Positions 31,788 through 59,264 of a stretch of 64,000 nucleotides of DNA are shown piece after piece. The stretch comes from Pycnococcus provasolii (lineage: Eukaryota > Chlorophyta > Pseudoscourfieldiophyceae > Pseudoscourfieldiales > Pycnococcaceae): contig OW568868.1 of NCBI GenBank assembly GCA_938743325.2, positions 496,001-560,000 on the forward strand. Reading direction: 5' to 3'. Positions within the stretch are counted from its first letter, which is position 1. The number at the start of each line of letters is the position of its first letter. Below the pieces are notes generated by a model. The model did no database searches and was not told the DNA's origin. It worked only from the letters and a program-made list of their open reading frames with translations. A program made the position numbers and the translations under genes.

Positions 31788-32762
31788 TTACAGGTCGACG
31801 TGTCCGAATGGCCCAGCGACGCCGGCGGGAGGCGCCTCGCCGTAGTGGTTGACTCCCCAGCACGCCATGCTGCCGTCGCGTCGAAGCGCGAGCGAGTGAT
31901 AGTGCCCCGCAGCGATAGCGACGAAGTCGCCGTCGACGCCGCCGGGAGGAGCCTGGCCGGTGCGGTTCAGTCCCCAGCACGCGATCCTTCCGTCGCGTCG
32001 AAGCGCGAGCGAGTGGCAGACACCCGCAGCGATTGCGACGAAGTCGCCGTCGACGCCGCCGGGAGGCGCTTGGCCTTGGGCGTTGTCTCCCCAGCACGCG
32101 ACATTTCCGTCGCGTCGAAGCGCGAGCGAGTGCCTGCTCCCCGCAGCGATTGCGACGAAGTCGCCGTCGACGCCGGCGGGAGGCGCCTGGCCGTTGCCGT
32201 TGTCTCCCCAGCACGCGATGCCACCGTCGCGTCGAAGCGCGAGCGAGTGATAGCCCCCCGCGGCGATTGCGACGAAGTCGCCGTCGACGCCGGCGGGAGG
32301 CGCCTCGCCGTAGTGGTTGACTCCCCAACACGCGATGCCACCGTCGCGTCGAAGCGCGAGCGAGTGATAGCCCCCCGCGGCGATTGCGACGAAGTCTCCT
32401 GCGACGCCGGCGGGAGGCGCCTGGCCGTCGGCGTTCTGTCCCCAGCACGCGATCCTTCCGTCGCGTCGAAGCGCGAGCGAGTGAGCCCATCCCGCAGCGA
32501 TCGCGACGAAGTCGCCGTCGACGCCGGCGGGAGGCGCCTGGTCGTAGTAGTCGGCTCCCCAGCACGCGATGCCGCTGTCGCGTCGAAGCGCGAGCGAGTG
32601 CGAGCCCCCCGCAGCGATTACTCTCGACGAAAGTCGCGCTAAGCGAATACGCTCCTGCTCCTTCGCAACCCGTCGTTCGCGCTGCCACGGTATGAATGCG
32701 AGTCGGAGCGCTTCGTACGCCAACTCTCCCTGGAGCACAGGGTCCACAGAGTGCGCAGACAT
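31788..32762 (-). CDS. RCC1-like beta-propeller protein with highly uniform repeats
   Basis: 324 residues: a basic helical N-terminus (about 1-50), then seven repeats of 39 residues with consensus FVAIAAGxxHSLALRRDGxI and ACWGxNxxGQAPPAGVDGD, the RCC1/BNR-type blade pattern (the GxxHSLAL turn and CWG strand). Seven blades make a complete propeller. Repeats are nearly identical in DNA, unlike classical RCC1, so it is probably not the Ran exchange factor. It resembles RCC1-like repeat proteins of bacteria and algae. Ligand unknown. Other frames across the repeats are also open; this frame is chosen because it gives the propeller signature and an ATG at 32762. Confidence 0.8.
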   Translation of the reverse strand: MSAHSVDPVLQGELAYEALRLAFIPWQRERRVAKEQERIRLARLSSRVIAAGGSHSLALRRDSGIACWGADYYDQAPPAGVDGDFVAIAAGWAHSLALRRDGRIACWGQNADGQAPPAGVAGDFVAIAAGGYHSLALRRDGGIACWGVNHYGEAPPAGVDGDFVAIAAGGYHSLALRRDGGIACWGDNGNGQAPPAGVDGDFVAIAAGSRHSLALRRDGNVACWGDNAQGQAPPGGVDGDFVAIAAGVCHSLALRRDGRIACWGLNRTGQAPPGGVDGDFVAIAAGHYHSLALRRDGSMACWGVNHYGEAPPAGVAGPFGHVDL

Positions 32763-33215: not shown

Positions 33216-34491
33216 ATGATGATAATGGCGTTCTCCACCATGATAGCACTCATGCTGACCTTCCTCTCTGTCAGCGCCGATGACCACGTCGATCAGATGA
33301 TGATGGCCGCGCCCGAGCCGGAGGCGGAATTCGATCTTGCGACTTCGCGCTCGCGTGTCAACCAAGATCCGGCGACGCTTACGCGCCCGGAGCTGCGATA
33401 CGGAAACTACCTGCCGCTGCTCGGTCGTGGACGCAGGCTCCTCGACGGCCACTCGGAGGAGGCGGAAGACATGGAGGAGATGATGGCGCCAGCCAGCTAT
33501 GATGACCGCCGCCGTCAACTTCTCGATTCGGAGGAGGCTGCTGCTGCTCCCGCACCAACGGAAGATGAGGAGGGAACGCTCGAGCTCGCGACGGAGCGTG
33601 GTAGGCTTGGAGGGCGCACCGGGATGAACTTCGGAACGGGAACGCTGTACACGCAGAACCGCTTCGACAACCGCCGCCGTCAGCTTCTCGACAACCACGC
33701 AGCTCCCGCGCCTGAAGATGAAGCTGAGCTCGTCATGAGCACCGAACGTAAGTCTACCTCTAACCACCACAAATAAAAAAGAAAACGATCACTAACAACC
33801 TAACACGCTAAATAAAACAGGTGGTCGAATTGGAGGACGCACAGGCTACAACTTCGGAACGGGACAGCTGTATACGCAGAACCGCTTCGATGACCGCCGC
33901 CGTCTTCTGGAGGCGGAGGCGGAGGCGGAAGACCATGACGACCATGACGACCACGACGACCACGACCACGACCACGACCACGAGGCGGAGGCGGAGCCTG
34001 CTGCTGCTGTCGTCGATGATGAGATGGCGTCGATGATGATGATGATGGCGCCAGAGCCTGAGATGGATCTTGCGACGACGCGTGCTCGTTTGGCTTTCTC
34101 GCCAGGGCGCTCCTTCGACGCAAACGACTCTCCTGCACTGCTGGCCGCGCTAGGAAATGTCGGTCGCCGCCGTCAACTGCTCGGAGAAGAGATGGAGTCC
34201 GAGATGATGATGATGGCGCCCGAGCCAGAATTCGATCTTGCGACGTCGCGTGCTCGTTTGGCTTTCGCGCCAGGGCGCTCCTTCGACGCAAAAGACTCTC
34301 CTGCACTGCTGGCCGCGCTAGGAAATGTCGGTCGCCGTCGTCAGCTTCTCGGAGAAGAGATGGAGTCCGAGATGATGATGATGGCGCCGGAGCCAGAAGC
34401 AGATCTTGCGACGGAGCGTGGTCGAATTGGCGGGCGCACAGGCTTCAACTTCGGAACGGGACAGCTGTATACGCAGAACCGCTTTGACTAA
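33216..34491 (+). CDS. Secreted modular protein A with polybasic sites (candidate peptide precursor)
   Basis: Exons 33216-33747 and 33821-34491 (phase-1 intron), 400 residues. A signal peptide (MMIMAFSTMIALMLTFLSVSA) leads to about seven modules. Typical modules run from an acidic APEPE(F/M)DLAT(S/T)R stretch, through a variable core (RPELRYGNYLPLLG, or GRIGGRTGFNFGTGQLYTQN, or PALLAALGNVG), to a basic RR/RRR followed by xLL(D/G/E). The middle carries an Asp/His tract (DHDDHDDHDDHD). The protein ends LYTQNRFD with no basic site after it. The G-RRR and G-RGRR contexts resemble prohormone cleavage/amidation sites; RRxLL sites also resemble processing sites of algal wall proteins. No family recognised; secretion is well supported, peptide release is inferred. 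Confidence 0.72.
33748..33820 (+). other. Intron of secreted protein gene A
   Basis: 73 bp, donor GTAAGT, CACTAAC branch site about 28 bp before the AAACAG acceptor, phase 1. Splicing joins STE and R-GRIGGRTG, restoring the module; read-through stops within 10 codons. An identical intron occurs at 35358-35430. Confidence 0.8.
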
Positions 34492-34610
34492 GAATTTGGG
34501 GAGAAAGAGAACAACAATTGAATGTACTGTTGCGCGTGCACACGCACTAAGAATTTGGGGAGAAAGAGAACAACAATTGAATGTACTGTTGCGCGTGTAC
34601 ACGACGAGTT
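34488..34610 (+). repeat. 59-bp direct duplication in the 3' UTR of gene A
   Basis: CTAAGAATTTGGGGAGAAAG and what follows appears at 34488 and again at 34547. A single copy follows gene B (about 36374) and two copies follow gene C (about 37248 and 37312), so copy number differs between paralogs. Confidence 0.85.
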
Positions 34611-34861
34611 GCGCGGTGAGCAACAACACAACAAACACGTAAAACATTTCGCACAAATAAACTCTCCATCCCCAATCAATTGAAATTTGAAGCCGACCAA
34701 CCGATCAGGATATTTTTCTCGGGGGATCTCTCGGCAGGTGCGCTTAGAGGAAGCGGGGGTTCGGATCGGTTCGGATCCGAGGATTACCCCACTTCAAAAC
34801 GCCGATGGAAATCATCCTGAGTTTTCTCACATTTCACAACGCACAAGGAAAAGCAAACGAC

Positions 34862-36293
34862 ATGGCGTACTCAGCTGTCGCGCTCCTCGCATTCTTTGCC
34901 GCATTTCACAACGCCGATGGCGTCCTCGGTGGTGACTCGATGGCGACTGCCTCATCTTCCGAACGTACCTTGGTGGACGAGCCCATGATGATGGCACCCG
35001 AGCCAGAATTCGATCTTGCGACGTCGCGCGCGCGTGTCAACCAAGATCCGGCGACGCTCTCGCGCCCGGAGCTGCGATTCGGAAACTACCTGCCGCTGCT
35101 CGGTCAAAGTGGACGCAAGCTCCTCGACTCGGAGGAGGCTGCTGCTGCTCCCGCACCAACGGAAGATGAGGAGGGAACGCTCGAGCTCGCGACGGAGCGT
35201 GGTAGGCTTGGAGGGCTCACCGGGATGAACTTCGGAACGGGAACGCTGTACAACGTAGATGGGTTGGGGCGCTTCGACAACCGCCGCCGTCAGCTTCTCG
35301 ACAACCACGCAGCTCCCGCGCCTGAAGATGAAGCTGAGCTCGTCATGAGCACCGAACGTAAGTCTACCTCTAACCACCACAAATAAAAAAGAAAACGATC
35401 ACTAACAACCTAACACGCTAAATAAAACAGGTGGTCGAATTGGAGGACGCACAGGCTTCAACTTCGGAACGGGACAGCTGTATACGCAGAACCGCTTCGA
35501 TGACCGCCGCCGTCTTCTGGAGGCGGAGGCGGAGGCGGAAGACCATGACGACCATGACGACCACGACGACCACGACCACGACCACGACCACGAGGCGGAG
35601 GCGGAGCCTGCTGCTGCTGTCGTCGATGATGAGATGGCGTCGATGATGATGATGATGGCGCCAGAGCCTGAGATGGATCTTGCGACGACGCGTGCTCGTT
35701 TGGCTTTCTCGCCAGGGCGCTCCTTCGACGCAAACGACTCTCCTGCACTGCTGGCCGCGCTAGGAAATGTCGGTCGCCGCCGTCAACTGCTCGGAGAAGA
35801 GATGGAGTCCGAGATGATGATGATGGCGCCGGAGCCAGAATTCGATCTTGCGACGTCGCGTGCTCGTTTGGCTTTCGCGCCAGGGCGCTCCTTCGACGCA
35901 AAAGACTCTCCTGCACTGCTGGCCGCGCTAGGAAATGTCGGTCGCCGCCGTCAACTGCTCGGAGAAGAGATGGAGTCCGAGATGATGATGATGGCGCCGG
36001 AGCCAGAAGTAGATCTTGCGACGGAGCGTGGTCGAATTGGCGGGCGCACAGGCTTCAACTTCGGAACGGGACAGCTTTACACGCAGAACCGCTTCGACAA
36101 CCGCCGTCATCTTCTGGAGGCGCATGACGACCATGACGACCACGACGACCACGACCACGACCACGACCACGAGGCGGAGGCGGAGCCTGCTGCTGCTGTC
36201 GTCGATGATGAGATGGCGTCGATGATGATGATGATGGCACCCGAGCCAGAATTCGATCTTGCGACGACCCGCGGATATTTATATGTTCATTGA
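34862..36293 (+). CDS. Secreted modular protein B with polybasic sites (candidate peptide precursor)
   Basis: Exons 34862-35357 and 35431-36293, 452 residues. Signal peptide MAYSAVALLAFFAAFHNADG. An upstream in-frame ATG (34805) would put 19 hydrophilic residues before the signal and is disfavoured. Module structure is as in gene A, with an additional Asp/His tract and acidic module at the end (RRHLLEAHDDHDDHDDHD). The reading frame stops at 36293 inside a palindromic 34-bp sequence, where the paralogs have the terminal GRTGFNFGTG...LYTQNRFD module. That module is still readable just downstream (36303-36375) in another frame, so the C-terminus has been altered or is joined by an unseen splice. 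Confidence 0.68.
35358..35430 (+). other. Intron of secreted protein gene B
   Basis: 73 bp, appears identical to the gene A intron (offset 1610): GTAAGT donor, CACTAAC branch site, AAACAG acceptor, phase 1. Confidence 0.8.
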
Positions 36294-36303
36294 ACATTCC
36301 GCG
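36270..36303. repeat. 34-bp palindromic insert in gene B
   Basis: CGCGGA and TCCGCG form the outer arms; inside lies the perfect palindrome ATGTTCATTGAACAT. A 5-bp direct repeat CCGCG (36269-36273 and 36299-36303) flanks the insert, as a short target duplication would. Confidence 0.6.
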
Positions 36304-36687
36304 TGGTCGTTTGGGGGGCCGAACAGGCTTCAATTTCGGATCGGGAACGCTTTATACGCAGAACCGCTTTGACTAAGAATTTGGGGAGAAAGAGAACAAC
36401 AATTGAATGTACTGTTGCGCGTGTACACGACGAGTTGCGCGGTGAGCAACAACACAACAAACACGTAAAACATTTCGCACAAATAAACTCTCCATCCCCA
36501 ATCAATTGAAATTTGAAGCCGACCAACCGATCAGGATATTTTTCTCGGGGGATCTCTCGGCAGGTGCGCTTAGAGGAAGCGGGGGTTCGGATCGGTTCGG
36601 ATCCGAGGATTACCCCACTTCAAAACGCCGATGGAAATCATCCTGAGTTTTCTCACATTTCACAACGCACAAGGAAAAGCAAACGAC

Positions 36688-37251
36688 ATGGCGTACTCAG
36701 CTGTCGCGCTCCTCGCATTCTTTGCCGCATTTCACAACGCCGATGGCGTCCTCGGTGGTGACTCGATGGCGACTGCCTCATCTTCCGAACGTACCTTGGT
36801 GGACGAGCCCATGATGATGGCACCCGAGCCAGAATTCGATCTTGCGACGTCGCGCGCGCGTGTCAACCAAGATCCGGCGACGCTCTCGCGCCCGGAGCTG
36901 CGATTCGGAAACTACCTGCCGCTGCTCGGTCAAAGTGGACGCAAGCTCCTCGACTCGGAGGAGGCTGCTGCTGCTCCCGCACCCGCGGAAGATGAGGAGG
37001 GAACGCTCGAGCTCGCGACGGAGCGTGGTCGTTTATACGGTCGTTTCCGGGGGTATACCGTTGGTCGAACAGGTATGAACTTCGAAAAAGTCGGTCGCCG
37101 CCGTCTGCTCGGAGAAGAGATGGAGTCCGAGATGATGATGATGGCACCCGAGCCAGAAGTAGATCTTGCGACGGAGCGTGGTCGAATTGGCGGGCGCACA
37201 GGCTTCAACTTCGGAACGGGAACGCTTTACACGCAGAACCGCTTTGACTAA
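36688..37251 (+). CDS. Secreted modular protein C, short paralog
   Basis: 187 residues, single exon. Same signal peptide and first module as gene B (offset 1826), then a different junction (GRLYGRFRGYTVGRTGMNFEKV) leading to GRRRLLGEE and the terminal acidic module ending LYTQNRFD. It lacks the intron, the Asp/His tract and the middle modules, consistent with formation by tandem duplication plus internal deletion. Expressed status unknown; promoter sequence is shared with gene B. Confidence 0.68.
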   Translation: MAYSAVALLAFFAAFHNADGVLGGDSMATASSSERTLVDEPMMMAPEPEFDLATSRARVNQDPATLSRPELRFGNYLPLLGQSGRKLLDSEEAAAAPAPAEDEEGTLELATERGRLYGRFRGYTVGRTGMNFEKVGRRRLLGEEMESEMMMMAPEPEVDLATERGRIGGRTGFNFGTGTLYTQNRFD

Positions 37252-49415: not shown

Positions 49416-49661
49416 TTACTGCTCTCACTCCTCGCGCGCGCACTTGCGTGTGCGCACACACCTAGTTAGCCAACGTAGTAAGCCAACTAAGGTGCAGATC
49501 AGGCTCACAGCTTTCGGGTGGATACGTTTGCTCGCCTGCTTGCCTGCCTGCGCACAGCACAGAGCACAAAGTCCCTTCAAGGGAAAAAAAAGTAAACTCG
49601 CGACCGTTTGATCTCGCAGCAGCAGCAGCAGCAGCAGACAAGTGTTCACGACAACAACAAC

Positions 49662-52600
49662 ATGAACAGCAACAGCAACAACAACAACAACAGCAACTCT
49701 GGTTTGCAGCAGCAGCCGCAGCTACAACATAAGAACACCACTGGGGCTGCCTCAACAAATCTCACAGCAGCAGCAGCAGCCTCCATGATTGTAGACCTGC
49801 CTCCTCACGTGGGAACGTTAGACGCATCCGCGCGTGCCAAGGTGGAGGCGGCCATGACGAGCCACCCGTGCGGGTTGCTGGTGTGCGACGCACTGGAGGA
49901 TGACTTCCCCATCCTCTACGTCAACCGCCAATTCGAGACAGCCACGGGATACGCCGCGTCTGAAATCGTCGGCAAGAACTGCAGGTTTTTGCAGTTTCGT
50001 GGTCCGCACGCGCTCGAGCGACACCCTCTCGTCGACGGTAAGCTCGTCGCGAAGATGCGAGACGACATTACGCACGGGCGCGACTTTCAGGGTACCGTCC
50101 TGAACTTCACCCGCGACGGAACGCCCGTGATGAACGACCTGCTCATGTGTCCCATCTTTGGAGACACTACAAGGCCAACGCGCGTGACGCACTACGCGGG
50201 CATACAGAGATTTCATCCAGCACCGCAGCATATTGTGGATGCCATCTCGCGTGAAACAGCTGCGGCAGAAGCTACACCAGCAACAAACGCCTCAGTCGCA
50301 CAAGCGCAAGCACAAGCAGCTGCAGCAGCAGCAGCAGCAGAGCGACCGCCTCAGTCGCAGTATCAGCAGCCGCAGCCGTCCACCTCGGGAGGACGAGACT
50401 CGTCCTCTTCGGAACCTGAGGCGAAGCGAGCTAGAATAGGAGGCACAGGTGACGACGACGGAGCTGGCACGACGACGACAGCTGCACGAGATGCTACCGC
50501 GCCTGCTTCAAATACTCAGCAGCAGCAGCGCGGCACCGTCACGTTTGCACGCTTCACCGGAGGTGGAAGTCCCACCACTGCGCCGCTCCTACAAATGGGT
50601 GACGAGGTGCTCGCGCTCATAGCCGCGAAGTGCGACCTGCCATCTCTCGCCTGCCTGAGCGCCACGTGCAAGAAAATGCGTAGCATCACATACAACAACG
50701 GAAATCTGTGGTACACTGCCGCACTGGAAACGTGGGGTGCCACAGAAACGACACTCGCGATGATGGACTCGCTTCTGCACCTTGCCAAGGTGGCAGGTTG
50801 GCGTACCGCCATTCGCGACGTCTGCGCTCTCGATAAGTGCCGCTGGCGAACACTGCAGGTGCGTGGTAGCGTTACACCGCATCGCACAAATTGTACGGCG
50901 TGTTCTGTGGGAAGTCGCATTGTCGTGTTCGGTGGAGAGGGTTCTGGTTCCCAAGCTTTCTCCGACACGCACGTCCTCGACCTTTCGTCGTCGATGAGCT
51001 GGCAGGATGGAGGATCAAGACCAGATGCGCCGTCCGCAATCCGACAGCCGCCTCCACCCTTGGATCGCGGGGAGGCGACGGATGGTACACCCCCGGAATT
51101 AAGGTCGCCGGGCAGTCATCGTGCCACAGGTGCAGGTGCAGGTGCAGGTGCTGCCGTCGTCGCCGCCGCAGCGGTGGAACCACCACCACCACCAAGGCAA
51201 CAGTCAGAAGCCGCCGCCGCTGCAGGAGCAGCAGCGGCACCACCACCACCACCAGCACCAGGGGCGGCACCATCGTCCGCCGCCGCCGCAACAGCAGCAG
51301 CGGCGAATGCAGCTCACGCTCACGCACCGCCACCAAATCCTCTTTCAGCTCCTGCCGTCCAATCTGGCGACTCGGATTCAGGAAGCGGCGAACAGCAGAG
51401 GCTTCTGCTTCAGCACAAACAGCAGTGCAGTCAACAGCAGCGCGGCCAAGGCCAAGTGGAAGCTCGGTGGAAGCCTGTGGAGACGGACTGCCATCCTCCA
51501 GGACGCTGGGGACACACTCTCACGTGGCTTTCCGAGACAAAGGTACTCTTGTTCGGAGGCTGCGATGCCACGACCGTGATGAATGATCTCTGGGTCCTAA
51601 CGCTAGACGTGGAGGTGGACAGCTCCGGCAACGAGGTGTTCCCTGACTCGTCATCCGACGACAAGACGAGCAGCGGCAACGCAACGACTAACAATGCCAT
51701 CTCGCTTGCACCCGAGGCTGTGAAGCTCATGCGACGCCGTCAGCGTGAGCGTCGCGAGCACATGGCGAGGCTGCCGCCGCACCGTCGCATATCGACTTGG
51801 CGCCGTGTGCAGACGATTGGCACGCCCGAGCCACGAAGCTGGCACAGCTGCTGCGTGGTGAATAATCGCGAGCTCGTCATCTCTGGAGGATGCTCGGCAT
51901 CCGGACGCCTCATGAATGACCTTCACATCATAGACCTTAGTGCGGTGCTCGATGATGATTACAGCACCGTGGCATGCTGGCACGAAGTGAACTCTAGCAT
52001 CAAGCATACGCCACGCCTTGGCCACAGCCTCGTCTGCGTGACTACGACCAGCTCGTCGTCCAGCAAGCTGCTTTTCCTCTTCGGCGGCCTTGCCACCGTC
52101 GGCAATGTGCGCATTCGCAGCTCGGACGCCTACCTGATTGACCTCAGCGCAGAGTGGCCGACTTGGTGCGAGGTGGCAGGTCCGTACCCAGGTCCGGCAG
52201 TGGCTGTGGGCACCGGAGCTGGCGCCATGGTGGCGGCAGTACCGCCGCCTTTGATTCCACCCCCGCGTCTGGAGCACGTCGCTGCCTCCGTACTCGGTGG
52301 GCGAATTTTGGTCTTCGGGGGCAGCCTGAGCGGCGTTGGGTCAAGCCACGACGTGTTTGTCTTCAAGCCGCACGCCACCTCGCGTGGCGAAGACGATGTC
52401 GCGGGCAATGCAGGTGCAGGAGGCGCGGGTGGCGTGATTGGTCCGATCGTCGCACCACCTCCAGGCACGTTGGCGGCTGATGCAGACGCCGATGTCGTTG
52501 CACAGCACATTAGCGCGTCGTGGAAGCACCTGCGCGTGCACGTTTCGAGCCCACCGAAGGAGGCGTGGGGTTACTCCGCGTGCAACATTGGCTCACGCTC

Positions 52601-53246
52601 CGTCATCGTGCCGTACTCCGAGGGCGGGTACTCTGGCCTCACTGAGCTGCTTGAGCTGATGCTCGTGCGCCATCCCTCCGAGGTGGGTCAGGGGAATGGC
52701 AGCGGCAGCGGCGGCATGGACTCAGGAAGTGCACAGAATCAACATGCGTGGACGCAGATGCGATGGAGTCGTGGCAGCACGAATGATCCGAAGAAGAAGG
52801 AGGCGGACGTACTACCTCCCAAGCCCACTGCCGCGGCTGCGGCCGCGGCTACGCTCGCGGCACCTCCGCCCCTCGCAGACGTGGCGATGGCCCCTCAGCA
52901 CAATGCTGGAGGCGCAGGAGCCGGCGGCGGCGCGGGCGCTGTCGCCGCGGCGAATGCAGAGGTAGAAGCGCGCGCCGTGGCAGCCGCCGACGCTGTCGCG
53001 CGGCACAACATGGGCGTTGGACTGCACGTGCCTAGCACGCTCGACGTTGCGGCGCCGCCGCCGCATCCTGCGGAGGTGCGCGGGGGTGGCGGGTCGAGCG
53101 AAAACCAGAGCGTGAGCAAGGCTTCGGAGTCGGCTCGCATGCGTCAAAATGCCACCTGGTTGGACCGTGAGCAAGGTGGCAGCAGCGACAGAACGAGCAC
53201 ACCGCCTGGAAGCAGTGGCGACGACTCGGTGACAAGCCCCGTTTGA
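49662..53246 (+). CDS. ZTL: LOV-F-box-Kelch photoreceptor (ZEITLUPE/FKF1/LKP2 family)
   Basis: 1194 residues, single exon. Asn/Gln-rich N-terminus. The LOV domain (about 65-180) has the flavin-adduct motif GKNCRFLQ with Cys107 and the ZTL-specific insertion FRGPHALERHPLVD, then DFQGTVLNFTRDGTPVMNDL. An F-box (MGDEVLALIAAKCDLPSLACLSA, about 310-360) is followed by six-bladed Kelch material (VVFGGEG, VLLFGGCD, LVISGGCS, LLFLFGG, RILVFGG). Two long Ala/Pro/Gln-rich inserts lie between F-box and Kelch blades. In land plants these proteins are blue-light-gated E3 adaptors that set clock and flowering-time protein levels. The ATG at 49662 is the first in frame. Length is twice the plant ~610 because of inserts. 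The inserted LOV helix makes this a true family member rather than a chance PAS/Kelch mix. Confidence 0.92.
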   Translation: MNSNSNNNNNSNSGLQQQPQLQHKNTTGAASTNLTAAAAASMIVDLPPHVGTLDASARAKVEAAMTSHPCGLLVCDALEDDFPILYVNRQFETATGYAASEIVGKNCRFLQFRGPHALERHPLVDGKLVAKMRDDITHGRDFQGTVLNFTRDGTPVMNDLLMCPIFGDTTRPTRVTHYAGIQRFHPAPQHIVDAISRETAAAEATPATNASVAQAQAQAAAAAAAAERPPQSQYQQPQPSTSGGRDSSSSEPEAKRARIGGTGDDDGAGTTTTAARDATAPASNTQQQQRGTVTFARFTGGGSPTTAPLLQMGDEVLALIAAKCDLPSLACLSATCKKMRSITYNNGNLWYTAALETWGATETTLAMMDSLLHLAKVAGWRTAIRDVCALDKCRWRTLQVRGSVTPHRTNCTACSVGSRIVVFGGEGSGSQAFSDTHVLDLSSSMSWQDGGSRPDAPSAIRQPPPPLDRGEATDGTPPELRSPGSHRATGAGAGAGAAVVAAAAVEPPPPPRQQSEAAAAAGAAAAPPPPPAPGAAPSSAAAATAAAANAAHAHAPPPNPLSAPAVQSGDSDSGSGEQQRLLLQHKQQCSQQQRGQGQVEARWKPVETDCHPPGRWGHTLTWLSETKVLLFGGCDATTVMNDLWVLTLDVEVDSSGNEVFPDSSSDDKTSSGNATTNNAISLAPEAVKLMRRRQRERREHMARLPPHRRISTWRRVQTIGTPEPRSWHSCCVVNNRELVISGGCSASGRLMNDLHIIDLSAVLDDDYSTVACWHEVNSSIKHTPRLGHSLVCVTTTSSSSSKLLFLFGGLATVGNVRIRSSDAYLIDLSAEWPTWCEVAGPYPGPAVAVGTGAGAMVAAVPPPLIPPPRLEHVAASVLGGRILVFGGSLSGVGSSHDVFVFKPHATSRGEDDVAGNAGAGGAGGVIGPIVAPPPGTLAADADADVVAQHISASWKHLRVHVSSPPKEAWGYSACNIGSRSVIVPYSEGGYSGLTELLELMLVRHPSEVGQGNGSGSGGMDSGSAQNQHAWTQMRWSRGSTNDPKKKEADVLPPKPTAAAAAAATLAAPPPLADVAMAPQHNAGGAGAGGGAGAVAAANAEVEARAVAAADAVARHNMGVGLHVPSTLDVAAPPPHPAEVRGGGGSSENQSVSKASESARMRQNATWLDREQGGSSDRTSTPPGSSGDDSVTSPV

Positions 53247-57584: not shown

Positions 57585-59171
57585 TCACCAAGCGAATGAG
57601 AACCAGTACACGACGAACGGTTCGAGGATCACTCGTGTCGCAAAGTAAAACAGAATGCCGAGCGCAATGCTGAATGGAAGAGCGGGCAGTGCCTTCTTCA
57701 TCACCGCGAGAATGAGCAGCGTCAACCCCAAGCCTGATATGATTGCCAGGTACGAGCTGAACACCGTGAGCATGTCTGTCATTGCCGCACGGCCCACCAT
57801 CACGGAGTAGAAGATGAAGTCGCCAAGTCCGAGCTTAATACCGTCGGGCAAATCGAACTCGGAGGAGTCAGACTCATTATCGGCACCTCCACCTGAGTCT
57901 GCGGCCGCTCCAGCAGCAGCTCCTCCTCCTCCTCCTCCTCCTCCTCCTCTATTACCGCCGCCACCGCTGCCGCCACCGCCACCTTCATCTTCTTCGATGA
58001 CAGCATTTGTAATGGGATTTGATCGCCATAGCGTTCTTGCACCCGCGTTGACGTTGTCGTTCTCACCCGTCCCAAAGAGCCATCGCATCACGCCGCTATT
58101 CGATCGTCCCTCGCGCGTCGTCGTCGTTTGTTCGCCGTCAATGAGGCTTGCGCGTTCCTCGTCGCTTGGCGCTCTTGCTCGGCTATGCGCATCAGCCATG
58201 AAGGTGAAGAAGAATGCCGGAACAGCCGGCGTCCTCGTCGTCGCGTTGGAATTTGTCGTCCTACGCTCCACCATTGCCACAGATGCGGGTGCGCCCGTTG
58301 CATTTGGCGCCGAGTTTCGCTGAGTGCGGCCCCAACCTCGCGGAGGTCCGCGCATCGGCCTCGCCTCGTAGACGAGCGCTGGAAGGTCCTCGTCGCGTTC
58401 CTGCGCGAGCTCGACGAGCACCTTGAGAGGTCCCCCTGGTGTGAGTACCGCGTACAGGTCGTAGATGGCCATGGCGGCGAGCAGCAGCCACGTCGTCCAC
58501 TCGGGTATTTTTGTGAACCAGAACGCGACGACGACGCCGACGAACACTAGGTAAGCCTGCTTGAGCGTGAGCGGTGCGGGCATGAAGAAGACGCTGAGCA
58601 CGCCGGCCATGGCGAAGTTGTAGAGGAAGAATAGCAGCGAGTAGATGTCAACGGCGACGTTGAATCTCTGCAGAAGTTGTGTGATGACCACCCCACCGAG
58701 TACGAAGAAGACGTTGAATCCGGCGAACGCCATGTACGCCCATATGATGCTTGTGCACCTGTACTTGAAGAGGAGGAAGAGCACGAACGTCATGGCTGTT
58801 ATGAAGAGTACGAAAATGAGCGCGTTCATGGCACCTCCTTCGAATTTTTCCGTGCTGGATGCGTTATTGTGCTGTGCTTCTTTGTACCAGACTTGTGCGA
58901 TTCCAACTGCGTTTGGATTATCTGATCCGTGCGGCATGAGTGCACGCACGAGTAGAACGCAGAGCAGCATGGTGATGCTGACAGGTACGAATATGCGGTT
59001 GATTTCCTCCCCGAGATATGTCAAAGCGGAGACGGAGACCTGCTGCATCGATGAAGAAGAATGAGCAGGAGCACCAGGAGCAGGAGCACCACCACTGCGA
59101 GATAAGTCGTTCATCAAAGACTGTGAATGTGGTGGTGCGCTATTAGGCTCCGACGACGACGACGACTCCAT
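57585..59171 (-). CDS. PSEN: Presenilin (intramembrane aspartyl protease)
   Basis: 528 residues. Nine hydrophobic segments with the two catalytic aspartates in AIYDLYAVL (Asp238) and KLGLGDFIFYS (Asp451), and the PAL motif in KALPALP near the end. The N-terminus is Ser/Pro-rich. The hydrophilic loop between the catalytic helices is long and Gly/Asn-rich. Presenilin is the protease of gamma-secretase; green plants and algae keep it without Notch, so its substrates here are unknown. ATG at 59171; a CCCTAA tract lies about 95 bp upstream. Convergent with the GNAT gene. Confidence 0.95.
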   Translation of the reverse strand: MESSSSSEPNSAPPHSQSLMNDLSRSGGAPAPGAPAHSSSSMQQVSVSALTYLGEEINRIFVPVSITMLLCVLLVRALMPHGSDNPNAVGIAQVWYKEAQHNNASSTEKFEGGAMNALIFVLFITAMTFVLFLLFKYRCTSIIWAYMAFAGFNVFFVLGGVVITQLLQRFNVAVDIYSLLFFLYNFAMAGVLSVFFMPAPLTLKQAYLVFVGVVVAFWFTKIPEWTTWLLLAAMAIYDLYAVLTPGGPLKVLVELAQERDEDLPALVYEARPMRGPPRGWGRTQRNSAPNATGAPASVAMVERRTTNSNATTRTPAVPAFFFTFMADAHSRARAPSDEERASLIDGEQTTTTREGRSNSGVMRWLFGTGENDNVNAGARTLWRSNPITNAVIEEDEGGGGGSGGGGNRGGGGGGGGGAAAGAAADSGGGADNESDSSEFDLPDGIKLGLGDFIFYSVMVGRAAMTDMLTVFSSYLAIISGLGLTLLILAVMKKALPALPFSIALGILFYFATRVILEPFVVYWFSFAW

Positions 59172-59264
59172 AGCTTCTTCTTACGGTAGCTGCTAAGGTA
59201 CTGTAAGAGTAGGAACACACACGAAAAGCGAATGACAAATGGCGGACGTTAATATTTATTTATG

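What the first reader, a model, noticed from the sequence alone, without database searches (positions are those of the whole stretch)
33216..37251. Cluster of three secreted, modular proteins resembling multi-peptide precursors
Sequence: three tandem genes, each with a signal peptide followed by 3-9 modules. Typical modules run from an acidic APEPE-DLAT-R stretch, through a conserved core (GRTGFNFGTGQLYTQN or SPALLAALGNVG), to a basic site (GRRR, GRGRR, SGRK, NRRR) and xLL(D/E/G). Proteins A and C end right after LYTQNRFD, without a final basic site. Family knowledge: repeated units separated by G-R-R/K sites are typical of peptide hormone precursors, and amidated secreted peptides exist in Chlamydomonas. 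Inference: the cluster may release several short peptides, or be wall/scale proteins matured at RRxLL sites.
Basis: partly seen in the sequence, partly recalled or inferred. Interest (0 to 1): 0.72.

Follow-up and report, generated by a model that had tools for sequence, protein, structure and literature searches.

The report
Algal secreted precursor with repeated cut-sites
A green alga carries a small family of secreted-looking proteins built like beads on a string, with the same four-letter cutting signal (R-x-L-L) between the beads, so each protein is probably chopped into several small acidic peptides whose job is still unknown.

Summary
Three tandem genes (A, B, C) in a green alga, and a fourth (D) on another contig, encode Cys-free, Lys-poor proteins with a signal-peptide-like start and 3-7 units each. 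Every unit boundary is R-x-L-L followed by D, E or G: 14 of 14 in the window, 19 of 19 with D; no basic pair lies elsewhere. R-x-L-L fits the site-1 protease (S1P) consensus better than a plain dibasic site. The genome encodes an S1P, and I found no subtilase joined to a kexin P-domain. I read the genes as polyprotein precursors cut at R-x-L-L, laid out like diatom silaffins and silacidins but with other sequences. Amidation could occur at only 11 of 19 boundaries, although a bifunctional PAM is encoded. Gene B is interrupted near its end. The APxPE..LAxxRG motif also occurs in other putative secreted proteins, so a matrix role is at least as likely as signalling. No relative was found in viral or prokaryotic collections; no eukaryotic collection was available. 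Cleavage, enzyme and function are inferred, not shown.

The parts
33216..33747 (+). Gene A exon 1: start MMIMAFSTMIALMLTFLSVSA (its own leader, unlike B/C/D), gamma unit, short acidic piece, alpha unit, start of the next unit; three R-x-L-L sites
33748..33820 (+). Gene A intron, 73 bases, GTAAGT...CAG
33821..34491 (+). Gene A exon 2: alpha unit, RRLL site, Asp/His-rich stretch, two beta units each ending GRRRQLL, last alpha unit ending LYTQNRFD-stop
34862..35357 (+). Gene B exon 1: start MAYSAVALLAFFAAFHNADG, gamma unit, RKLL, alpha unit, RQLL, start of the next unit
35358..35430 (+). Gene B intron, identical to that of A
35431..36293 (+). Gene B exon 2: as A exon 2, plus RHLL and a further Asp/His + Met unit; ends RGYLYVH-stop
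36272..36301 (+). AT-rich stretch of about 30 bases inserted in the last unit of B (exact limits uncertain); its core occurs once in the window
   Evidence: sequence
36302..36376 (+). Out-of-frame remainder of an alpha unit (RGRLGGRTGFNFGSGTLYTQNRFD-stop) behind the insert in B
36688..37251 (+). Gene C: same N-terminus as B, two sites (RKLL, RRLL), three pieces, ends LYTQNRFD-stop
34490..34603 (+). 3' flanking repeat (AAGAATTTGGGGAGAAAGAG...), two tandem copies after A; further exact copies start at 36375, 37250 and 37314, and one follows D on C11

Best explanation
The genes encode secreted, probably largely unfolded polyprotein precursors. After entry into the ER each is cut at R-x-L-L|(D/E/G) between units, most likely by the alga's site-1 protease (S1P/MBTPS1/SBT6.1 type) in the Golgi. 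This releases several acidic, Met-rich (MMMMAPEPE) and in part Asp/His-rich peptides of about 27-91 residues, most of which carry one of three conserved cores: alpha (GRTGxNFGTGxLYTQNRFD), beta (SPALLAALGNVG) or gamma (DPATLSRPELRFGNYLPLLG). The last unit needs no site. The products most probably act outside the cell, as matrix or scale components or metal-binding peptides, less probably as signals. Shown by sequence: gene structures, units, invariant sites, protein-level constraint on the alpha core, and presence of S1P in the genome. Inferred: signal peptides, expression, cleavage, the enzyme, and the role of the products.
For: R-x-L-L at 19 of 19 unit boundaries in four genes, P1' always D/E/G, no basic pair outside the sites and their three preceding residues, no Cys. 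Alpha core: pooled pN/pS 0.31 over 10 units, pairs not independent. S1P orthologue on C23: MBTP1_N, Peptidase_S8, MBTPS1_3rd and MBTPS1_4th models all match; aligned over about 700 residues with the S1P of PDB 8uwc at E 1.8e-258, with DTG, GHG and SGTS motifs kept; it has RRLM where that chain has RRLL, the place reported as human autoprocessing site C (PMC8310232). Published consensus (passages read): human S1P prefers RRLL (PMC8310232); plant S1P/SBT6.1 cuts RxxL/RxLx in peptide precursors (PMC13082318; PMC4983112). Precedent (passages): silaffin repeats end in RRIL/RRNL, absent from the mature peptides, and RXL sites close repeats of silacidins, cingulins and frustulins (PMC4557024). In a heuristic set of 39 signal-peptide-like reading frames, an R-x-[LIV]-[LMKTF] site lies within 120 residues after the leader in 3 of 3 family members and 3 of 36 others.
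Against: No transcript, proteome or cleavage data. Every site also contains a basic pair, so a dibasic endoprotease could cut there. The subtilase search gave 24 matches, and plant SBT3.5 shares the RxLx preference (PMC13082318), so S1P is not the only candidate. Motif relatives on C21, C22 and C43 carry the APxPE-type motif with no R-x-[LIV]-[LMKTF] site in the first 120 residues after the leader, so the motif does not need cutting; R-x-L-x sites are not common in the small secretome sample. The AlphaFold2 model is poor (mean pLDDT 45, four sequences), which agrees with disorder but does not prove it. Pooled pN/pS for beta and gamma units (0.56, 0.60) rests on few changes. Two sites in gene C are within the shuffle range.
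Confidence: 0.6

Rival explanations
1. Dibasic peptide-hormone route: a subtilisin-like convertase cuts after the basic residues, a carboxypeptidase trims them, and PAM amidates the units that then end in Gly; the peptides signal between cells, as GATI-amide does in Chlamydomonas.
For: A basic pair at 19 of 19 sites. Gly directly before the basic stretch at 11 of 19 (counted). Bifunctional PAM (PHM + PAL/NHL) encoded on C5. 18 M14 carboxypeptidase matches, subclass not sorted. One subtilase frame (L050, C19) with a membrane-anchor-like N-terminus, by eye. Precedent in Chlamydomonas (PMC6919629, passages; PMC6313938, passages).
Against: 8 of 19 sites have no Gly before the basic stretch and cannot give an amide (seven behind alpha units, one behind the short acidic piece of A). 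The LL at a fixed distance after R, and the acidic or Gly residue after it, would be unexplained. The only P-domain match is in a frame where no subtilase match was listed, though an intron-split gene could be missed.
Confidence: 0.17
2. Uncut extracellular matrix, wall or scale protein: the repeats are structural and the basic sites are binding or cross-linking points.
For: The APxPE..(E)LAxxRG motif is shared with putative secreted proteins that look like matrix proteins: C21 (TSP1 domain), C22 (Cys-rich tail), C43 (Gly/Tyr-rich, motif repeated). The matches of C21 and C22 are weak (E 0.155 and 0.005-0.24) and rest partly on the eye. Repeat length and number vary among A-D.
Against: The R-x-L-L sites are invariant while unit length and order vary. 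The final unit of A, C and D lacks a site, as expected of a precursor and not of a regular fibre.
Confidence: 0.15
3. Metal-handling secreted peptides: the (D)DH repeats bind Zn/Cu/Ni and the Met clusters bind Cu(I); cutting is secondary or absent.
For: Five pieces (one in A, two in B, two in D) hold 7-8 His in an Asp/His run; runs of 4-5 Met in many units (sequences). Sub-threshold match of the Asp/His stretch to the ZrgA zinc-uptake family (20.2 bits against a cut-off of 27.4), probably composition.
Against: Gene C has no Asp/His run and most pieces lack it. The Pfam match is below its cut-off and low-complexity.
Confidence: 0.06

Closest known systems
Diatom silaffin-1 and silacidin precursors (RXL polyproteins)
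   Same: Signal peptide, tandem repeats, and an RRIL/RRNL or RXL site at the end of repeats (PMC4557024 and PMC5525289, passages).
   Different: Green alga, not a diatom. No Lys-rich polyamine units (1-3 Lys per protein). Different conserved cores.
Plant S1P/SBT6.1 peptide precursors (RALF23, GOLVEN1/CLEL6)
   Same: Secreted precursor with an RRxL or RxLx site (PMC13082318 and PMC4983112, passages).
   Different: Those precursors give one mature peptide (recalled); here six cuts would release up to seven pieces. No Pfam family fits over its cut-off.
Chlamydomonas prepropeptides and the amidated GATI peptide
   Same: Green alga, a family of precursor-like genes with a gene cluster, PAM present (PMC6919629, passages).
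   Different: Sites here follow R-x-L-L; 8 of 19 cannot give an amide.
Volvocine pherophorins
   Same: Secreted, matrix-associated; several were found cleaved in the Chlamydomonas secretome (PMC6313938, passages).
   Different: No pherophorin match by Pfam and no Cys.

Membership tests
Substrates of site-1 protease (S1P) | R-x-hydrophobic-(L or similar) cleavage motif | tested here: met
   19 of 19 boundaries R-x-L-L
Substrates of site-1 protease (S1P) | Enters the secretory pathway | tested here: inconclusive
   Hydrophobic N-termini of A, C and D by a simple heuristic (B shares the start of C); no SignalP available
Substrates of site-1 protease (S1P) | S1P present in the same genome | tested here: met
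   L046 on C23; its C-terminal end lies beyond the fetched locus
Substrates of site-1 protease (S1P) | Cleavage by S1P demonstrated | not testable with these tools
   needs an enzyme assay
Neuropeptide-like multi-copy prohormones | Signal sequence, several similar units, no recognised domain | tested here: met
   no Pfam match over its cut-off in A-D; signal sequence heuristic only
Neuropeptide-like multi-copy prohormones | Paired basic sites between units | tested here: met
   RR or RK at 19 of 19, always inside R-x-L-L context
Neuropeptide-like multi-copy prohormones | Kexin/furin convertase (S8 + P-domain) in the genome | tested here: not met
   One PF01483 match, in a frame without a listed S8 match; the search ignores introns, so a split gene could be missed
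Neuropeptide-like multi-copy prohormones | PAM present and amidation glycine at the sites | tested here: inconclusive
   PAM present; Gly at 11 of 19 sites
Neuropeptide-like multi-copy prohormones | Released bioactive peptide | not testable with these tools
   needs mass spectrometry and bioassay
Diatom silaffins/silacidins | RXL at the C-terminus of repeats | tested here: met
   PMC4557024 passages
Diatom silaffins/silacidins | Diatom origin | tested here: not met
   51 LHC matches and a green-type Lhca3
Diatom silaffins/silacidins | Lys-rich (silaffin) units carrying polyamines | tested here: not met
   1-3 Lys per protein
Diatom silaffins/silacidins | Ser phosphorylation and acidic phosphopeptides (silacidin) | not tested
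   Ser content not counted; modification not testable
Pherophorins | Pherophorin domain | tested here: not met
   no such match among Pfam results

The most novel reading that the evidence does not exclude
This is a multi-unit R-x-L-L polyprotein system in the green lineage, which my few paper searches did not turn up. One conserved Golgi protease, S1P, would cut one chain into up to seven pieces of three kinds. The diatom RXL protease, called unknown in PMC5525289 (passages), could then be the same kind of enzyme, so that distant algae would share one processing principle for secreted peptides.
Probability: 0.3. Interest if true: 0.75.

Novelty: new variant of a known kind. Interest (0 to 1): 0.5.

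Why it matters
Multi-unit secreted precursors are known from animals and from diatom silica walls; work on green-algal peptides that I read (PMC6313938, PMC6919629, passages) looks at dibasic and amidated ones. A precursor family with 19 of 19 R-x-L-L boundaries, in a genome with an S1P, is a clean and testable substrate set. It could show which protease shapes algal secretomes and offers a candidate class for the unidentified RXL protease of diatoms. The conserved cores give defined peptides for matrix, metal-binding or signalling assays.

Tried and rejected
Dibasic kexin reading: not excluded, but less specific than R-x-L-L (see rivals). PEXEL/RxLR-type export motif (recalled): rejected, since sites recur through the whole chain and are not confined to the N-terminus. 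Diatom silica protein: rejected because light-harvesting genes place the genome with green algae. One IFT46 match suggests a flagellate stage. Viral collection: 6 pattern stretches with the A exon-2 protein and 13 with the alpha alignment, none a relative. Prokaryote genomes: 31 stretches, none a relative. Other low-scoring places (C20 three times, E 0.02-0.29; C39, E 0.6) were read, showed no motif of this kind to the eye, and were dropped. A genome-wide RRRQLL DNA pattern gave 125 matches against 72 for the backward control, 7 of them in this cluster. RRRQLL covers only 7 of the 19 sites. Not all 125 places were listed; of those listed, the three other pairs under 400 bases apart were read and none gave a secreted multi-site precursor; a repeated frame at C27:146860 was not followed further. 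A general use of the site in the secretome was looked for in a small, biased, heuristic set and not found: 3 of 36 non-family frames, exact R-x-L-L in 1 of 36. One search had a splice junction off by one base, corrected. The B/C comparison at the end was unaligned and is not used. Three paper searches gave nothing that I used. A resemblance of the alpha core to phytosulfokine (YTQ; recalled) is three to four letters and was not pursued.
Full report
What the genome is. The window is part of contig C8 of a 32.3 Mb assembly in 46 contigs. It has 51 light-harvesting-protein matches. One of its PSI antenna proteins matches Lhca3 chains of PSI structures, with entries that I recall as green algal at the top. 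One IFT46 match suggests a flagellate stage. It is therefore a chlorophyte-type green alga. I did not identify the species: the two rRNA searches failed.

The genes. Gene A (33216-33747 + 33821-34491) and gene B (34862-35357 + 35431-36293) have an identical 73-base GT-AG intron. Gene C (36688-37251) has none. A and B are 97.5% identical over 979 aligned bases. A 658-base stretch that covers the spacer before B and the first part of B differs from the matching stretch before and in C at 2 positions, so the cluster is young or homogenised. A has a different leader from B, C and D. Exon 2 of A and B differs at 9 of 666 positions, 7 synonymous and 2 not. A fourth gene, D, lies on contig C11 from 372166, with three rounds of gamma-alpha units separated by Asp/His stretches in one frame.

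Anatomy. Cutting the four proteins at R-x-L-L gives 7, 7, 3 and 6 pieces. Three cores recur: alpha (ERGRLGGRTGxNFGTGxLYTQNRFD), beta (RLAFxPGRSFDAxDSPALLAALGNVG) and gamma (RVNQDPATLSRPELRFGNYLPLLG). Each follows an acidic stretch, often MMMMAPEPExDLATxR; five pieces open with a DDHDDHDHDH-type run holding 7-8 His. The 19 sites are invariant at P4 (R), P2 (L) and P1 (L); P3 is Q 7, K 5, R 4, H 3; P1' is E 8, D 6, G 5. No basic pair lies outside the sites and their three preceding residues, there is no Cys, and Lys is 1-3 per protein. Shuffled proteins give on average 0.16-0.36 such sites; C with two sites is not significant alone, and one or more of 5000 shuffles reached the value of D (all). 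The last units of A, C and D have no site. The alpha core is under protein-level constraint (pooled pN/pS 0.31; 10 units, pairs not independent); beta and gamma have too few changes to say. Gene B is broken off near its end by an AT-rich insert of about 30 bases, with the remainder of an alpha unit out of frame behind it. An AlphaFold2 model of exon 2 of B is of low confidence throughout (mean pLDDT 45).

Who could cut it. Human S1P is reported to prefer RRLL, including its own site C (PMC8310232, passages). Plant S1P/SBT6.1 and SBT3.5 cut RxxL/RxLx in peptide precursors such as RALF23, GLV1 and PROSCOOP12 (PMC13082318 and PMC4983112, passages). In this genome the S8 search gave 24 matches, a lower bound. 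Of the 20 loci returned I scanned 18 (not L056 and L058); one, L046 on C23, carries MBTP1_N, Peptidase_S8, MBTPS1_3rd and MBTPS1_4th. It aligns with the S1P of 8uwc at E 1.8e-258, keeps DTG, GHG and SGTS, and has RRLM where that chain has RRLL. Its C-terminus runs to the edge of the fetched locus and was not examined. The single P-domain match lies in a frame where I saw no subtilase by eye and near which one search lists none; an intron-split kexin could be missed.

Amidation. Eight Cu2_monoox_C places were found and all eight frames were scanned. One, L067 on C5, is PHM plus NHL in one frame and matches full-length PAM (5wm0, E 8.6e-60) and the PAL domain (3fvz, E 1.2e-21). Five carry a Temptin_C domain, one a DOMON domain, and one neither. 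M14 carboxypeptidase matches: 18, not sorted by subclass. Amidated peptides are therefore possible in this alga, but at these genes only 11 of 19 sites have Gly before the basic stretch.

Relatives. In the same genome the APxPE-type motif occurs in putative secreted proteins: C43 (E 1e-5 with the A exon-2 query; two tandem genes, of which the first, Gly/Tyr-rich, repeats the motif), C22 (Cys-rich tail; E 0.24 with A, 0.005 in the reverse search) and C21 (TSP1 domain; E 0.155 with the C22 protein). The last two rest partly on the eye. None of the three shows an R-x-[LIV]-[LMKTF] site in the first 120 residues after the leader. No relative was confirmed in viral contigs or prokaryote genomes. 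No eukaryote collection was available, so presence in other algae is unknown. No Pfam family fits A-D above its cut-off.

Controls. In a heuristic set of 39 signal-peptide-like frames from the window and part of the fetched loci (31 overlapping or family loci left out; biased towards subtilase loci; some frames surely not genes), 3 of 3 family frames and 3 of 36 others had an R-x-[LIV]-[LMKTF] site within 120 residues after the leader; exact R-x-L-L occurred in 1 of the 36. The sites are thus not a general feature of this small sample. A genome-wide RRRQLL DNA pattern is commoner than its backward control (125 against 72), which by itself says little; 7 of the 125 fall in this cluster.

Comparison with known systems. 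The closest in layout are silaffin-1 and silacidin precursors of diatoms, whose repeats end in RRIL/RRNL/RXL (PMC4557024, passages); the protease that removes RXL domains is called unknown in PMC5525289 (passages). A search of the paper library for 'site-1 protease' with 'diatom' and 'silaffin' gave no paper. Searches joining site-1 protease with green algae, and with Chlamydomonas, gave 3 and 1 papers; none looked from its listing to be about such a system. By membership tests the cluster is neither a silaffin nor a pherophorin, and only partly a classical prohormone. It is laid out like an RXL polyprotein.

Verdict. A real, small, recently duplicated family of probable secreted polyprotein precursors; processing at R-x-L-L, most likely by S1P, is the best-supported mechanism, at about 0.6. 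What the peptides do is open; the company the motif keeps (TSP1, Cys-rich and Gly-rich secreted proteins) points to the cell surface or matrix at least as much as to signalling.

Noticed in passing
window 49596-53243 (+): Reading frame with PAS, F-box-like (just under its cut-off) and Kelch repeats, an architecture like the ZEITLUPE/FKF1 blue-light receptors (name recalled).
   Followed up: no
window 57588-59180 (-): Full-length presenilin match (PF01080, E 4.5e-117).
   Followed up: no
window 31788-32762 (-): RCC1-like repeat protein (HSLALRRDG.IACWG...; named by eye) on a 117-base tandem array of about 7 copies, just upstream of gene A on the opposite strand.
   Followed up: no
G000 C31:133072-142609 and 360395-366434: Twelve light-harvesting genes with the same match score, in both orientations, in two clusters.
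   Followed up: no
L032, next gene downstream of D: Another secreted-looking repeat protein (TLRAFAPAAEAAAERFRTDAERLGAEFND units) beside paralog D.
   Followed up: no
L050 and L055 (C19, C38): Subtilases joined to Kringle domains; L050 also has EF hands and a membrane-anchor-like N-terminus.
   Followed up: no
L036, L037, L038, L070, L071: Five Cu2 monooxygenase frames carrying a Temptin_C domain; the first three have signal-peptide-like starts.
   Followed up: no
L073 (C27:146860-146993): Frame with repeated LRLRALRRRRQL units; may be antisense to another repeat protein.
   Followed up: partly
alpha units of genes A, B, C: The alpha core contains LYTQN, similar in three to four letters to phytosulfokine YIYTQ (recalled); probably chance.
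   Followed up: no
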